A stretch of 60,094 bases of DNA. It comes from Acidobacteriota bacterium. Lineage in GTDB: Bacteria > Acidobacteriota > Vicinamibacteria > Vicinamibacterales > UBA823. A program made the position numbers and the translations under genes. This document shows positions 1 to 5,484 of the stretch, piece after piece. The DNA lies in the NCBI GenBank assembly GCA_002730525.1, contig PCAK01000024.1, positions 1-60,094 on the forward strand. Direction: 5' to 3'. A model generated the notes under the pieces. That model saw only the letters and a list, made by a program, of their open reading frames with translations. It had not been told where the DNA came from and searched no databases. The first letter of the stretch is position 1. Each line of letters opens with the position of its first letter.

Positions 1-1
1 G

Positions 2-55
2 ATCCTCGAGAGTGCGGATGGAAGCGTGTACCCCCTGACCGACCGGCGGCCTTGA
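2..55 (+). CDS. C-terminal end of a gene entering from the left (partial)
   Basis: Frame 2 is open from the window edge for 17 codons (ending ...YPLTDRRP) and stops at TGA 53-55. Codon third positions are mostly G or C, as in the genes to the right. Nothing in so short a tail identifies the protein. The following 79 bases hold only a weak hairpin (gggc-caaa-gccc near 88-98) before the convergent ATP-grasp gene ends. This may be chance. Confidence 0.3.
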   Translation: MLESADGSVYPLTDRRP

Positions 56-134
56 CACCGGCTGGCTCTCTCATGGAAGGGCCAAAGCCCTGCCCTACAC
101 TCCCAACGCCCAGCCCCTCGCCAGTGCCGCCTGC

Positions 135-1400
135 CTAGCGTGCCATTGGCAGATCGAGGTCGATGTCGAAGCTGAGGTGGGAGTGGGCGCGGCGGACGGC
201 GGCGACGGCGGCTTCGGGTGTTGCGGCGCTGGCGAAGATGAAGCCGAGGTAGCTCGCGCCCTCGGGCATCGGCACGAGGCGCTGGCCGGGCTTGGCCGTG
301 ATCACCAGGTCGTCCACACCGCGCACCGCCCTCGCGCGATCCTGCCCACGCACACGCCGCAGGTGACCGGCGCGCGGAGTCGGGATCATCATGACCGCCG
401 ACGCACCCGGCGCGCGACGGAACCCGCGCCCCGCTTCGCCGGTCGCATGGCGCAGTAAGACCTCCTCGTAGGAACAGGCCCGACCCGATGGGCCGACGCA
501 CCGCAGGACACGGGCGCACAGGCCGCCGATCGGCCGGGCCGCCACTTCCAGGACGACCACCCCGCCGGGTCCGAGCCGGCACTCCGCATGCACCGGCCCG
601 TGGGTCAGGCCGAGCGCGCGGACCGTGCCGGCCAGAGCTTCTTCGATCGCGGTGCAGACGTCGGGCGCCAGGCTCGTCGGCGTGGCGTAGATCGTCTCTT
701 CGAAGAACGGCCCGTCGAGCGGGTCGGGTTTATCGAAAATCGTCATGACATGGAGGCGGCCGTCGTCCAGGAGCCCCTCGACCGTGATCTCGGCGCCCTC
801 GACGTATTCCTCCACGAGCACCTGATCGTTGGCCGGATCGCGCAGCGCGCGGATCCCCGGCTGCGCCAGCAGCCGGCCGACCCGGGCCAGCGCCGCATCG
901 AACTCTGCCTGATCGTCAGCCCGGATGACGCCTCGACTGCCCGAGAGTGCCAGCGGTTTGACGACGCAGGGGAAGCCGAGCGGCTCCGCGAGACCGGCGT
1001 CGATCTGATCGAGTCGGATCGCTCGGAAGGCCGGCGACGGGAGCCCAACCTCGGCCAGCCGCCTCCGGTAGCGAAGCTTGTCGGCCGACGCGCGGGCGCC
1101 GTCCACCCCGCGAGCGGGCAGGTCGAACGTCTCGGCCGCCAACGCCGCCAGCAAGGCTGGGCGATCGCCGACGCCAAGGACTCCGTCCACGCCGCGCCCG
1201 TTCATCGCCTCGACGAGGCGGCGGAGCGAGGCCGTCTCATCATGAAACCGCACCGGGATGGCAGCATCCCTCCACGGGTCCTCGAGCGTCTGACACCGAT
1301 CGGTGGCAAAGACCAGGTCCAGACCGAGTCGCTCGGCCGCCTCGCCGAACACGCGTACTTGATATCCGGTCGTCGTGGCGAACAGGATCACACGCGGCAT
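135..1400 (-). CDS. ATP-grasp domain enzyme, last gene of the selenoprotein operon
   Basis: A 421-residue protein starting at ATG 1400 (MPRVILFATTTGYQVR). A longer open frame upstream is rejected because it runs back into the radical SAM gene. The fold is ATP-grasp: an N-terminal pre-ATP domain (about 1-105), then the nucleotide-binding lobe with FPCVVKPLALSGSRGV and VLVEEYVEGAEITVEG, and the acidic metal-binding stretch VHAECRLG...VVLEVAARPIGG. Such enzymes join a carboxylate to an amine or thiol through an acylphosphate, as in carboxylase-like and L-amino-acid ligase families; the substrate here is unknown. It starts only 23 bases after the true stop of the radical SAM selenoprotein, so the two are almost certainly cotranscribed and probably act in one pathway. 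The SECIS-like hairpin ends 20 bases before this start codon. Confidence 0.85.
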   Translation of the reverse strand: MPRVILFATTTGYQVRVFGEAAERLGLDLVFATDRCQTLEDPWRDAAIPVRFHDETASLRRLVEAMNGRGVDGVLGVGDRPALLAALAAETFDLPARGVDGARASADKLRYRRRLAEVGLPSPAFRAIRLDQIDAGLAEPLGFPCVVKPLALSGSRGVIRADDQAEFDAALARVGRLLAQPGIRALRDPANDQVLVEEYVEGAEITVEGLLDDGRLHVMTIFDKPDPLDGPFFEETIYATPTSLAPDVCTAIEEALAGTVRALGLTHGPVHAECRLGPGGVVVLEVAARPIGGLCARVLRCVGPSGRACSYEEVLLRHATGEAGRGFRRAPGASAVMMIPTPRAGHLRRVRGQDRARAVRGVDDLVITAKPGQRLVPMPEGASYLGFIFASAATPEAAVAAVRRAHSHLSFDIDLDLPMAR

Positions 1401-1419
1401 CGCCGTTCGATGTCTCTCA

Positions 1420-1453
1420 CCAACTAGAGGAGCGCGACCTGCTCCTCGGTCGG
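1420..1453 (-). promoter_or_regulatory. Bacterial SECIS-like hairpin behind an in-frame UGA
   Basis: Reading the minus strand, UGA (1462-1460) is followed six bases later by CCGAC (1453-1449), then GAGGAGC (1447-1441), a 7-nt loop AGGUCGC (1440-1434), GCUCCUC (1433-1427) and GUUGG (1424-1420). The upper stem has 7 perfect pairs. The lower stem has 5 pairs with one G-U, separated by a C / UA internal loop. The loop begins 19 nt after UGA. In E. coli fdhF the spacing is 17 nt and the loop is AGGUCU; the shared GGUC is the part SelB contacts. Position, size and loop sequence all fit a bacterial SECIS element. Confidence 0.8.
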
Positions 1454-2854
1454 CTCGGCTCAGCAGTACCACGGTTCGTTGAGATACGGGATGGCCGCCC
1501 GCGCCGACGCCCCGGCCTCGGGCACCGGCCGACTCACGCCGGCACGTTCGTGCGCCAGGTCCCACACCGCCTCGAAGGCCTCGCGGCGCGGCGCGGTGAC
1601 CCAGCGCCCTACCAGCGCCGTCACATCGGCCTGGAGCGCGTCGACGCGAGCGTCCGGGTGACGCCACGGGTAGATCAGACCGTCGGGTTGGAACGGACCG
1701 ACGGCGCTAGCGACCTCGGCGTGCGCCAGCAGGCCCGATCGTTCGGGCAGCAGCAGGCGGATCGCGAGTTGGATCGGCGCCACCGCGTCGATCAGGTCGA
1801 GGGCCGCCACCTCCTCGAGCATCCGACAGTAGGTGTCGAGCGTGGTCCACGGAGTGAACGGCACGAAGGTCGGCGTGAGGACCAAGCCCACCGCGCGGCA
1901 CGCCTCCACGGCCCGGGCCACGTCGGCGCGCGTGTGGCCCTTGTCGAGAATCTCGAGGACGCGATCGTCGAACGATTCGACGGCGCTCGTCACGAAGGCG
2001 CAGCCCGTGTCCCGCAGCGTCGGCAGCAGGTTGACCTGGTCGAGCAGGTGCTCGACCTTGACCGTCACGTCGTAGCTGAGATCCGGGAACGTCCGGGCCA
2101 CGCGACGGACGATCTCGACGGCGTGGGTCGGCCCGTTGAAGAAGTCGGGGTCACCGAACGTGATGTGGCGCGCGCCCGCCTCGACCTGAGCCCGGATGTC
2201 GGCGAGCACGACGTCGGGCGCCACGACCCGGAAGCACCCCTCGTAGACCGGCACGATCGGGCAGTGCCGGCAGGTGTGCTTGCACCCCCGGCTCGCCTCG
2301 GTGTACCCGACCAACCGGCGACCACCCGCCGCGTCGCTGAGCGCCGCGTACTGCGCCAGCGGCGGCAACGCGCCGCGATCGGGCACCTTGAACCTGAGCC
2401 GTGGAAGCTGGGTGGCGGCAGCGGGCGGCGGGCGGCCCTCGCCCAACGCGACCGCCAGGTCGGTGAGATCGGCTTCGAACTCGGGGCCGAGCACCGACGT
2501 CACGCCCAGTTCGGCCAGCAGCTGGGCGTTGGGCGGCGCGTAGAGGCCGTAGCCGCACAGGTGAGCGTCCGGGTTCACGTCGCGGACGCGCTGGATGATC
2601 GGCAGGGCCAACCGCGTCGCCGTGTGCATCGGGAGATACCAGGCGACCAGGCCGGCCCGTGACACCACGTCGTTGGAGAGTCGCTCCCGGGTGAGATCGA
2701 CGCAGGTCACGTCGACCCCGGCATCGCGCAGCCACGCCGCCGGCGACGCCAGCCCGAAGGGCTGCCGGCCCATCTCGTAGGTGCCGATGAGCAGCGCGCG
2801 CAGCGGCTCCGACCGCGCCTCGGCTCGACGACGGTCCGGCTCGGTGGGCGTCAC
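1424..2854 (-). CDS. CUAEP-tail B12-binding radical SAM selenoprotein (UGA read as Sec)
   Basis: Start GTG 2854 overlaps the stop of the symporter (GTGA). Residues 1-130 form a B12-binding-like Rossmann domain (LRALLIGTYEMGRQPFG... then LCGYGLYAPPN). The radical SAM core follows with the cluster motif C-K-H-T-C-R-H-C in ASRGCKHTCRHCPIVPVYEGC and the FGDPDFFNG strand. An ordinary reading stops at TGA 1462-1460 after ...LNEPWYC. Reading TGA as selenocysteine gives C464-U465-A466-E467-P468 and a short tail TEEQVALL ending at TAG 1426-1424, for 476 residues. C-U/C-A-E-P is the signature tail of a known radical SAM (seleno)protein family, and a SECIS-like hairpin lies in place. The vicinal Cys-Sec pair is probably a redox or substrate-binding site. 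The reaction is unknown. The neighbours suggest that a small molecule is imported (symporter) and then ligated (ATP-grasp). Confidence 0.85.
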
Positions 2855-4266
2855 GGCGTCACCGCGCGGTCCGCGGCCGGTCGGGTGGCCAGGCTGACGA
2901 CGACCAGGGTGACGATCGACAGCGTCAGCGCCGGATAGACCGTCTCGACTCCGAATGGGTACGCCGCGACACCGTCCTCGGCGCGGGCCAGCCCGACGAT
3001 CTCCCAGACGAGCGTCGTCGTCATACCCACGAGGATCGACGCGACACCGCCCGTCGGGGTGGCCCGCGGCCAGACGAGCGCGGCGAGCAGCGCCGGCGTG
3101 ATCCCGGCCCCGTACATCGTGTAGGCCCACAGCGCCATCGCGAGGATCGTCGGAAAGAAGTTGCCCGCGATGTAGCCGACCGCGCCGAGCGCGACGACCA
3201 TCAGCCGCGTGTAGGCGAGGACCTGCCGGTCCGTCGCGCCTGGGTTCACGAAGCGCTGGTAGACGTCGCGCATCAGGTTGGTGGCCGGCGTGAGCAGGAA
3301 GCTGTTGGCGGTGGACACGACGATCGCCGCCGCGCCGCAGACCAGCAGGATGCCGAGTCCCGTGGGTAGGGCCTGTAGCGCAACGTTGATCACGATCGAT
3401 TCCGAGCCGGCCGTGTCGAGCCCCGGAACGGCGACGCTGCCGAACACGCCGACCGAGTCGATCAGCGTCTCGACGACGATCGTGCCGACAATCCAGCCGA
3501 TCACGGCGCGGCGCGCCGCCCGCTCGTTCTTCGCGGAGAAGAACTTCTGGTACATGTTGGCTTCGCCGAGCAGGAGGAAGAGTGTCGGAAAGAACAACGC
3601 CAGCGCCGCCTGAGGCGACAGTTCGCCGAACAGCGACACCTGCTCGGGCCTGAGCGACCCGAGGGCCGCCGTCAGCCCTCCCGCATCCGAGACGAGGAAG
3701 GCCACGGCCAACGTCACGCCGACGACCATGACCGAGCCGTTAGCGATGTCGAGGTAGGCGATCGACAGCATGCCCGCCATCGCGGTGTAGACGACGCAGA
3801 ACGTGGCCGTCAGCAGCGCGCCGGTGCGCGGGTCGATCCCGGCAACCAATTCGAGCAGCCGCCCGCCGCCCCGAAACTGGTAGGCCGCGATCGTCGTGTA
3901 GGCCAGGACGGTCGTGAGGGTCCCCAGAATCCGCGCGGCCGGACCGAAGCGCAACTCCAGAATGTCCGGTACCGTGTACTGCGCGAGCCGGCGCACGCGG
4001 GGCGCGATGAAGTAGACGAGTGCTATCCCTACCCACGCGCCGGCCGACTGCCAGAGCGCCGGAAAGCCGGCCCGGTAGCCGAGCCCGGCGCCGGCGAACA
4101 GGCTGCCCGAGCCAATCCAGGTCGACAGCAGCGTGAACACGAGCACGCGCGCCGGCAGCGTGCGGCCGGCCACCAGGAAGTCATCGCCCGTGCGCACCTG
4201 CCGGCTGCGCCAGGCGCCGACCACGACCAGCGCGCCGAGATAGAGGGTGACCGCGGTCAGGAACAT
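2851..4266 (-). CDS. Sodium:solute symporter (SSS family)
   Basis: A 471-residue integral membrane protein starting at ATG 4266 (MFLTAVTLYLGALVVVG). About 13 hydrophobic segments alternate with short loops. Typical SSS features are the SRQVRTGDDFLVAGRTLP loop after helix 1, the LLSTWIGSGSLFAGAG stretch of the first unwound helix (Na+ and substrate site), and the conserved YTVPDILELRFG. The family couples Na+ entry to uptake of sugars, amino acids, vitamins or carboxylates; the substrate cannot be told from sequence. The 4-bp GTGA overlap with the radical SAM selenoprotein gene indicates translational coupling, so the transporter probably supplies or salvages a substrate of that pathway. It is the first gene of the three-gene operon. 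Confidence 0.85.
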   Translation of the reverse strand: MFLTAVTLYLGALVVVGAWRSRQVRTGDDFLVAGRTLPARVLVFTLLSTWIGSGSLFAGAGLGYRAGFPALWQSAGAWVGIALVYFIAPRVRRLAQYTVPDILELRFGPAARILGTLTTVLAYTTIAAYQFRGGGRLLELVAGIDPRTGALLTATFCVVYTAMAGMLSIAYLDIANGSVMVVGVTLAVAFLVSDAGGLTAALGSLRPEQVSLFGELSPQAALALFFPTLFLLLGEANMYQKFFSAKNERAARRAVIGWIVGTIVVETLIDSVGVFGSVAVPGLDTAGSESIVINVALQALPTGLGILLVCGAAAIVVSTANSFLLTPATNLMRDVYQRFVNPGATDRQVLAYTRLMVVALGAVGYIAGNFFPTILAMALWAYTMYGAGITPALLAALVWPRATPTGGVASILVGMTTTLVWEIVGLARAEDGVAAYPFGVETVYPALTLSIVTLVVVSLATRPAADRAVTP

Positions 4267-4349
4267 GAAGGCTCGCGTCAGGATATCAGGCCGGCGGGAA
4301 CGGTCACGGGAGCAAGCGCTTGATATGATCGCGAGCACGCTAGGTCTCG

Positions 4350-4475
4350 ATGCCGCTCGACGAGTATCGCCGCAAACGCGACTTCACGAAATCGCCGGAG
4401 CCCGAGGGCGCCGCCGAGTCGGACCCGCCTCGGCCCGCGGTGCGAAAGCGCACCCGGCGGGCCTTGCACAAGTAG
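4350..4475 (+). pseudogene. Stub resembling the N-terminus of the LigD phosphoesterase domain
   Basis: A 41-codon frame begins MPLDEYRRKRDFTKSPEPEG and ends ...RTRRALHK, stopping 7 bases before the YheT start. The pattern YRxKRDFxxTPEP is the recognisable N-terminus of LigD 3'-phosphoesterase-domain proteins, which continue for over 100 residues with FVVQKHxAxRLHYDFR; none of that is present. I read it as a truncated remnant, though a short basic peptide that is still translated cannot be excluded. A possible -10 (tatgat, 4324-4329) lies 20 bases upstream. Confidence 0.5.
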
Positions 4476-4482
4476 CGCCGCC

Positions 4483-5484
4483 GTGAGTGAGGTCTCGATC
4501 CCGCCGTACGTGCCGCATCCGCGCCTGACTCGCGGGCACGTGATGACGCTCTTCACGTGGGGGCGACCGCGCTGGTTCCCGAACTTACCCCGGCCGGTCG
4601 ACCGCTACTTCCAAGTCGCGCCTGACGCCCGCGTGCGCGCCGCGTGCCACTGGCAGGCCGACCGGCGCGCGCATCCCACGCTGATCGCGCTGCACGGACT
4701 CGAGGGATCGAGCGACGCGCACTACATGCGCGGCCTCGCCGACAAGGCGTTCGCCGCGGGGTTCAACGTGGTGCGCCTCAACCAGCGCAACTGCGGCAAC
4801 ACTGAACATCTCTCATCCGGTCTGTACCACTCGGGCCTGACGGCCGATCCAGCCGCCGTCGTGCGCGAGCTCGTGAGTGTCGACGGACTCGAGGCGATCG
4901 CGGTGACAGGCTACTCGCTGGGCGGGAACCTCGCCTTGAAACTCGCCGGCGACCTCGGGCCGGACTGCCCGCCTGCGCTCCGCGCGGTGTGCGCCATCTC
5001 GCCGACGGTCGACCTGGCGCTGTGCGTCGACGCGCTGGAGCGGAGGCAGAACCTTCTGTACCAGTGGAACTTCGTCAGGCAGCTCAAGGGGCGGATACGG
5101 CGCAAGGCCAGGGCGTTTCCGGGCCGGTTCGCGCTCGACGGCCTCTCGCGGGTGCGGACCGTGCGCGAGTTCGACGAAGCCTTCACGGCGCCGTACCACG
5201 GGTTCCGCGACGCGGCCGACTACTACCACCGCACGAGCGCGCTGCGCGTCGTCGACCGGATCCGGATCCCGGCGCTGGTGATCTCCTCCGCCGACGACCC
5301 CTTCGTCCCGATCTCGCAGTTCGGCGCGCCCGCGTGGCCCTCGAACCCGAACGTCACCGTGATGACGACGCCGCACGGGGGGCACTGTGGCTTCATCTCC
5401 GTCGGCCGACCCGGTGACGACGGCTACTGGGCCGAACATGCGGCGCTGCGGTTCGTAGAAGCGGTTTTACAACCTCCGGCGTAG
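4483..5484 (+). CDS. YheT-family alpha/beta hydrolase
   Basis: A 333-residue cytoplasmic serine hydrolase starting at GTG 4483. The opening is typical of YheT/ABHD1-3: YVPHPRLTRGHVMTLFTWGRPR. The oxyanion strand is LIALHGLEGSSDAHYMRGLA. The nucleophile elbow is GYSLGG with Ser145. The acid is in ISSADDPFVPIS and the catalytic His in TPHGGHCGF. RLNQRNCGNTEHLS is also characteristic. The family is a poorly defined esterase/lipase group; YheT of E. coli has no settled substrate. Length and motifs are complete. It is flanked by gene remnants on both sides, and its last 61 bases overlap the convergent DUF72 remnant. Confidence 0.9.
   Translation: MSEVSIPPYVPHPRLTRGHVMTLFTWGRPRWFPNLPRPVDRYFQVAPDARVRAACHWQADRRAHPTLIALHGLEGSSDAHYMRGLADKAFAAGFNVVRLNQRNCGNTEHLSSGLYHSGLTADPAAVVRELVSVDGLEAIAVTGYSLGGNLALKLAGDLGPDCPPALRAVCAISPTVDLALCVDALERRQNLLYQWNFVRQLKGRIRRKARAFPGRFALDGLSRVRTVREFDEAFTAPYHGFRDAADYYHRTSALRVVDRIRIPALVISSADDPFVPISQFGAPAWPSNPNVTVMTTPHGGHCGFISVGRPGDDGYWAEHAALRFVEAVLQPPA

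What the first reader, a model, noticed from the sequence alone, without database searches (positions are those of the whole stretch)
135..4266. Three-gene operon: Na+ symporter, selenoprotein radical SAM, ATP-grasp ligase
The symporter and radical SAM genes overlap by GTGA, and the ATP-grasp gene starts 23 bases after the selenoprotein's true stop. Import, radical chemistry and ligation in one unit look like a small biosynthetic or salvage pathway whose product is not known to me. The tight coupling also means the downstream start is only reached if the ribosome reads through or reinitiates past the UGA, so selenium supply could tune ATP-grasp expression.
Basis: inference. Interest (0 to 1): 0.75.

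Follow-up and report, generated by a model that had tools for sequence, protein, structure and literature searches.

The report
Selenoprotein radical enzyme and ligase operon
A soil- and water-bacterium operon pairs a selenium-containing radical enzyme, related to one that joins arsenic to an amino acid, with a peptide-bond-forming enzyme and a transporter, which points to an undiscovered small molecule that can be tested for directly.

Summary
The radical SAM belongs to NCBIfam NF040546 (616 bits, cut-off 500); its nearest other family by far is the arsinothricin enzyme ArsL (261 bits; next 41). The ATP-grasp is an L-amino-acid-ligase type (LAL_C2; PDB 3VOT, E 3e-34). Radical SAM and ATP-grasp are adjacent in 64 of 90 testable loci and co-occur in 32 of 35 genomes that have either. 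ArsL clusters on plasmids also carry an ATP-grasp gene in 4 of 5 examined. The symporter is one occupant of a transporter slot (13 loci; a POT peptide transporter in 16). Best reading: the enzyme makes a 2-amino-4-X-butanoate by transferring SAM's aminocarboxypropyl group to a soft element (arsenic most likely) held by the Cys-Sec tail, and the ligase makes a dipeptide from it. The chemistry is inferred. Selenium tuning of the ligase through the UGA has no comparative support.

The parts
2851..4266 (-). Sodium:solute symporter (SSF, PF00474), 471 aa
   Evidence: PF00474 125.7 bits, cut-off 22.8; NCBIfam TIGR00813 142 bits, below its 184 cut-off
1424..2854 (-). CUAEP/CCAEP-tail radical SAM selenoprotein, 476 residues, CX3CX2C at C191/C195/C198
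   Evidence: NF040546 615.7 bits, cut-off 500; translation; alignment
1460..1462 (-). UGA codon read as selenocysteine (residue 465)
   Evidence: Cys in 19 homologous loci, UGA in 77; Sec machinery in the genome; coordinates
1427..1447 (-). Proposed bacterial SECIS hairpin (7 bp, 7-nt loop) just after the UGA, inside the coding tail
   Evidence: Centroid structure; family-level pairing beyond a synonymous-codon null. In the window alone z = -1.24 and a rival fold exists
1401..1423 (-). 23-nt gap between selenoprotein stop and ATP-grasp start
135..1400 (-). ATP-grasp L-amino-acid-ligase-like protein, 421 aa
   Evidence: ATPgrasp_N, ATP-grasp_4 and LAL_C2 over cut-off; PDB 3VOT BL00235, E 3.3e-34, residues 19-405
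4267..4482 (.). Divergent intergenic region that bounds the operon 5' (next gene 4483-5484 is on the + strand)
   Evidence: no sigma-70-like and no terminator-like site found in 1-4700
1..134 (-). Contig edge; the operon's 3' side is not seen. YggX lies at the end of contig C39, in the order found in relatives

Best explanation
The operon makes a small non-proteinogenic amino acid and joins it to another amino acid. Step 1 (inferred): the radical SAM selenoprotein works like ArsL. [quoted passage not shown] X is most likely trivalent arsenic; selenium, antimony or another thiophilic element is not excluded. Step 2 (inferred): the ATP-grasp enzyme, an L-amino-acid ligase, activates one carboxylate with ATP and forms a dipeptide. 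Step 3 (inferred): the SSF symporter, or a POT peptide transporter in relatives, moves the product or a precursor. Shown by sequence: gene order, the Sec codon, family membership, conservation of the radical SAM-ligase pair. Not shown: any chemistry.
For: Nearest other family of the radical SAM is ArsL (NF040542, 261 bits; next family 41 bits). ArsL rows are 29-32% identical to the window protein, share the radical SAM core, and their RCCLKC tail aligns its CC with the CU of CUAEP. ArsL makes hydroxyarsinothricin and is proposed to do so by ACP transfer to arsenite (PMC8552651: abstract, section 4 part 1 and discussion read); a review passage says this ACP radical transfer is catalysed by a radical SAM enzyme in arsinothricin biosynthesis (PMC12159101, passages). 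Four of five ArsL plasmid loci examined (of 16 RCCLKC/ArsL hits) also carry an ATP-grasp gene; three of those proteins were translated and all carry ATP-grasp_4. Both ligase groups have BL00235 (3VOT) as closest solved structure (tested for one ArsL-cluster protein); that BL00235 accepts Met is recalled, and a 2-amino-4-X-butanoate is Met-like. Pair conservation: 64 of 90 loci; co-occurrence 32 both / 2 radical SAM only / 1 ATP-grasp only / 25 neither in 60 genomes, Fisher p 1.7e-13. The genome has arsM beside an ArsR-like gene elsewhere. In two loci (L103, L114) the radical SAM sits by DUF169, corrinoid-associated methyltransferase CpaM and an HgcAB-like fusion.
Against: The window protein scores below the ArsL cut-off and lacks RCCLKC. 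No arsenic gene recurs beside the radical SAM among the neighbour clusters I identified, whereas the 5 ArsL loci are full of them; not every cluster was named. ACR3 was not found in the genome. The HgcAB-like link is 2 of 102 loci and absent from the window's genome. 26 of 90 loci have no ATP-grasp directly downstream (3 of these have it upstream, one reversed). The two ligase groups are only 23-25% identical over about 260 aa, so they could be separate recruitments. The fold search finds AprD4, TsrM, OxsB and MgmA, which do other chemistry.
Confidence: 0.4

Rival explanations
1. The radical SAM does a different reaction (methylation, dehydration or other 5'-deoxyadenosyl chemistry) on an amino acid or peptide, and the Cys-Sec tail is a redox relay or cluster-protecting pair rather than an element-binding site. 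The ligase still makes a dipeptide.
For: Fold search: AprD4, TsrM, OxsB, MgmA at the top. Neighbours YggX (Fe trafficking, 55 of 102 loci) and an NfuA-like Fe-S protein (7 loci) point to Fe-S upkeep. No recurrent ars genes beside it.
Against: Sequence places it with ArsL, 220 bits above the next family. The tail pair is shared with ArsL.
Confidence: 0.28
2. Metalloid or selenium detoxification: the enzyme caps arsenite or a selenium species with ACP and the ligase and transporter help to dispose of it; no bioactive product.
For: ArsL relationship; arsM/ArsR-like locus in the genome; transporter next to the pair.
Against: No ArsR-type regulator or arsenite efflux gene recurs in the clusters identified; ATP-dependent peptide-bond formation is costly for plain detoxification (inference).
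Confidence: 0.17
3. Uptake/salvage: the Na+ symporter imports a substrate which the radical SAM and ligase then use.
For: SSF proteins import solutes (established knowledge); SSF is 73-96% identical to the window's in loci in which the radical SAM is only 57-85% identical.
Against: SSF directly upstream in 13 of 91 loci with enough upstream sequence; POT or neither elsewhere.
Confidence: 0.1
4. Selenium-gated operon: termination at UGA under selenium shortage lowers ATP-grasp translation.
For: UGA lies about 59 nt before the ATP-grasp start in the window.
Against: Spacing is loose and does not differ between Sec and Cys loci.
Confidence: 0.05

Closest known systems
CUAEP/CCAEP-tail radical SAM (seleno)protein, NCBIfam NF040546
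   Same: Over the cut-off; CX3CX2C; C[U/C]AEP tail
   Different: The model description gives a name and no function; the pairing with an L-amino-acid ligase is added here
ArsL, arsinothricin biosynthesis radical SAM, NF040542
   Same: Nearest other family; about 30% identity; vicinal CC/CU tail; recurrent neighbouring ATP-grasp gene and transporter
   Different: No RCCLKC tail, below the cut-off, no arsM/arsQ/arsN beside it in the window; selenoprotein
L-amino-acid ligase BL00235 (PDB 3VOT)
   Same: ATP-grasp with LAL_C2; query residues 19-405 align
   Different: Substrates unknown; sits in an operon with a radical SAM selenoprotein
SAO (Sec-assisted organometallic) selenoprotein operons
   Same: Selenoproteins of presumed organometal chemistry (review passages); HgcAB-like and CpaM genes near the radical SAM in 2 loci
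   Different: No HgcAB-like gene in the window's genome; other gene content
ArsS, arsenosugar radical SAM (TIGR04167)
   Same: Radical SAM; C-As bond chemistry (review passage); TIGR04167 is listed as a selenoprotein family (that TIGR04167 is ArsS is recalled)
   Different: TIGR04167 is not among the 14 NCBIfam matches of the window protein at E <= 0.001

Membership tests
NF040546 CUAEP/CCAEP-tail radical SAM | Score over the curated cut-off (500 bits) | tested here: met
   615.7 bits
NF040546 CUAEP/CCAEP-tail radical SAM | C-terminal CUAEP or CCAEP | tested here: met
   WYCUAEP
Selenoprotein | In-frame UGA aligned with Cys in homologues | tested here: met
   77 Sec, 19 Cys, 6 without readable tail of 102; 8-11 switches
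Selenoprotein | Sec machinery in the genome | tested here: met
   tRNA-Sec 61.6 bits, SelB 331.7, SelD 351.5, SelA 552, all over cut-off
Selenoprotein | bSECIS hairpin after the UGA | tested here: inconclusive
   Family: met (0.80 paired vs 0.595 in synonymous shuffles, 0 of 500; Cys loci 0.51 vs 0.48, 51 of 500). Window alone: 0.625 in those registers, z -1.24
ArsL, NF040542 | Score over the curated cut-off (450 bits) | tested here: not met
   261.1 bits
ArsL, NF040542 | RCCLKC tail | tested here: not met
   CUAEP instead; CU aligns with CC
ArsL, NF040542 | arsM/arsQ beside it in an ars operon | tested here: not met
   Neighbours are SSF and ATP-grasp; arsM is on another contig
ArsL, NF040542 | ACP transfer to As(III) | not testable with these tools
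   needs biochemistry
L-amino-acid ligase (ATP-grasp) | ATP-grasp domain with LAL_C2 | tested here: met
   ATP-grasp_4 103.9, LAL_C2 63.8 bits, both over cut-off
L-amino-acid ligase (ATP-grasp) | Dipeptide formation | not testable with these tools
   needs biochemistry
SSF symporter | PF00474 over cut-off | tested here: met
   125.7 bits vs 22.8
SAO / HgcAB-like system | HgcAB-like gene in the genome | tested here: not met
   none in G000 at E <= 1e-30

The most novel reading that the evidence does not exclude
A widespread, selenocysteine-dependent pathway of Acidobacteriota and other mostly uncultured phyla builds a new class of organometalloid dipeptide: the Cys-Sec tail presents the element to an ACP radical, the ligase caps the resulting amino acid, and a peptide or amino-acid transporter moves it. 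It would be the selenoprotein counterpart of arsinothricin biosynthesis, working outside arsenic-resistance islands.
Probability: 0.25. Interest if true: 0.85.

Novelty: new variant of a known kind. Interest (0 to 1): 0.55.

Why it matters
A named but functionless selenoprotein family gets a concrete, testable reaction and a partner enzyme. If right, metalloid-carbon amino acids and their peptides are made by many uncultured soil, groundwater and marine bacteria, with consequences for arsenic or selenium cycling and for antibiotic discovery. The survey also shows which part of the operon is conserved and which is not.

Tried and rejected
Selenium-gated translation of the ATP-grasp: tested by comparing spacing in Sec and Cys loci; no difference. 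The spacings were read and typed into the script.

Window SECIS on its own: dinucleotide shuffles gave z = -1.24, 21 of 200 fold as well; only the family test is convincing. In that test the window scored 0.625 against a null mean of 0.677, because its hairpin uses a 7-nt loop that the two tested registers do not include. One Sec sequence with N letters (L070) was dropped from that test (76 of 77 used).

Rfam families, tRNAs, sigma-70 promoters and terminators: nothing in the stretches scanned. Membership in ArsL: rejected on cut-off and tail. HgcAB/SAO membership of the window: rejected.

Co-occurrence rules: 'radical SAM present' meant over the cut-off (29 of 60) or a strong partial (G010, G021, G033, G054, G059); the full-length but weak G056 match (106 bits) was not counted. 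'ATP-grasp present' meant at least 295 bits; weaker matches (G023, G026, G041 second copy, G051) were not counted.

Gene calls in relatives are simple ORF picks, so offsets are rough. Only some neighbour clusters were named with Pfam or NCBIfam. The tree is FastTree. Haft and Gwadz 2023 and Haft and Tolstoy 2025 are not held, so what they say of CUAEP proteins is unknown to me; 'CUAEP' and 'RCCLKC' occur in no paper of the library searched, and arsinothricin with ATP-grasp in none.
Full report
What is there. On the minus strand the window holds a sodium:solute symporter (4266-2851), a radical SAM protein (2854-1424) and an ATP-grasp protein (1400-135). The first two overlap by GTGA; the third starts 23 nt after the selenoprotein's TAG. 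The longer ORFs that the ORF list gives for the last two genes (556 and 510 aa) are mechanical extensions: homology fits GTG 2854 and ATG 1400. The 5' border is a divergent gene at 4483. The 3' border is unseen, because the window is a whole contig of 60,094 bp.

Selenocysteine. The radical SAM frame meets UGA at 1462-1460 and goes on for 11 residues, AEPTEEQVALL, to a TAG. Of 102 distinct loci, 77 have UGA and 19 a Cys codon at that place; 6 have no readable tail. On a tree the two states interchange at least 8-11 times. The window's genome has tRNA-Sec, SelA, SelB and a SelD that itself contains a UGA. A hairpin follows the UGA in the Sec genes: 0.80 of stem pairs form against 0.595 in synonymous-codon shuffles (0 of 500 reach it, 76 sequences), while the 19 Cys genes are near their null (0.51 against 0.48, 51 of 500). 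The window's own hairpin is not significant by itself.

Families. The radical SAM is NF040546, 'CUAEP/CCAEP-tail radical SAM (seleno)protein', 616 bits against a cut-off of 500. The next family is ArsL (261 bits, cut-off 450), then 41 bits. An AlphaFold2 model (mean pLDDT 88.9) resembles AprD4, TsrM, OxsB and MgmA most. The ATP-grasp protein has the L-amino-acid-ligase C-terminal domain and BL00235 as closest solved structure. The symporter's substrate cannot be told: SSF is clear, PutP and PanF models match below their cut-offs.

Conservation. Among 60 genomes (the window's and relatives of the same order or nearer), 29 have the radical SAM over the cut-off. Counting strong fragments, 32 genomes have both radical SAM and ATP-grasp, 2 radical SAM only (fragments), 1 ATP-grasp only, 25 neither (Fisher p 1.7e-13; relatedness is not corrected for). 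In 102 distinct loci, drawn also from a scan of 84,980 species with record titles that name Acidobacteria, Methylomirabilota, Planctomycetota, Chloroflexi, Gemmatimonadetes and others, the ATP-grasp is directly downstream in 64 of the 90 with at least 1.5 kb held. In three further loci (L088, L129, L141) it lies upstream instead. The symporter is directly upstream on the same strand in 13 loci, 12 of which (the window included) show all three genes in order; in the 13th the contig ends first. A POT peptide transporter (PF00854) is near the radical SAM in 16 loci, co-directional or divergent. So the pair is the core and the transporter varies.

Other neighbours. YggX, the Fe(II)-trafficking protein (PF04362), is in 55 of 102 loci, mostly convergent behind the ATP-grasp. 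In the window's genome the only YggX lies at the very end of contig C39, next to the MFS gene that follows it in relatives. The sister genome G001 holds both stretches collinearly, about 1.2 kb apart with a SurE-like ORF between (SurE recalled from its sequence). The window operon therefore probably runs on towards YggX across the contig gap. In L103 and L114 the radical SAM is followed by DUF169, CpaM and an HgcAB-like fusion, the last two over their NCBIfam cut-offs; DUF169 is near the radical SAM in six loci.

ArsL parallel. A tblastn of the radical SAM against 72,556 plasmids found 18 records: one CUAEP protein in Thermomicrobium roseum, 16 RCCLKC-tail/ArsL proteins and one short match. 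I read five of the 16 ArsL regions: Priestia, Alicyclobacillus, Klebsiella and Pantoea carry an ATP-grasp gene together with arsM, ArsN1, ArsR, aquaporin or MFS genes in varying sets; Pseudomonas amygdali has arsQ, arsL and arsM without ATP-grasp in the stretch shown. The ATP-grasp proteins tested from three of them share ATP-grasp_4; two also show sub-threshold LAL_C2. So ArsL, too, recurs with a ligase of this superfamily. The Thermomicrobium gene has no ATP-grasp in the stretch shown.

Mechanism. From these facts I infer ACP transfer to a soft element on the Cys-Sec pair, then dipeptide formation. It rests on homology with ArsL, whose product needs only arsL in E. coli (PMC8552651, section 4 part 1), and on the shared partner. 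Arsenic is the first candidate because of ArsL and because the genome has arsM beside an ArsR-like gene. Against arsenic: no ars gene recurs next to the pair among the clusters named, and ACR3 was not found in the genome. The alternatives are given with their weights.

Regulation idea. If UGA gated the ATP-grasp, tight spacing should be kept in Sec loci. It is not: hit-to-hit distances run from 0 to 989 nt in 50 Sec loci and do not differ from 13 Cys loci (p = 0.27).

Novelty. The radical SAM is a new member of a named family. The link to an L-amino-acid ligase and the ArsL-like pathway reading appear in no paper I could find by the searches (listings, with passages of some papers read); the two selenoprotein papers most likely to mention it are not held. 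A 2026 review of prokaryotic selenoproteins holds neither 'CUAEP' nor NF040546 in its main text.

Noticed in passing
L157 9381-9454 (Thermomicrobium roseum plasmid NC_011961.1, TRD_RS12835): The annotated CUAEP/CCAEP radical SAM ends at UGA; the DNA goes on with AEP codons, so the record lacks the Sec and the tail.
   Followed up: partly
L103 9545-12276 and L114 9603-12279: CUAEP radical SAM followed by DUF169, CpaM methyltransferase and an HgcAB-like corrinoid-ferredoxin fusion.
   Followed up: partly
G000:C10:38726-39655 (L163): SelD of the window's genome contains one in-frame UGA, so it is probably a selenoprotein itself.
   Followed up: no
Downstream of the ATP-grasp in relatives (for example L060, L061, L062, L067): YggX Fe(II)-trafficking gene convergent with the operon in many loci; Fe-S upkeep may be linked to the radical SAM.
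   Followed up: partly
L048, L052, L057, L063 and 15 other loci: Cys-tail versions occur in genomes that still encode SelB (G009, G025, G041; not found in G013), so loss of Sec machinery does not explain the switch.
   Followed up: partly
L170 1498-2867 (G000:C20): ArsM divergent from an ArsR-like regulator with Cys-rich ends, elsewhere in the window's genome (ArsR by motif, recalled).
   Followed up: no
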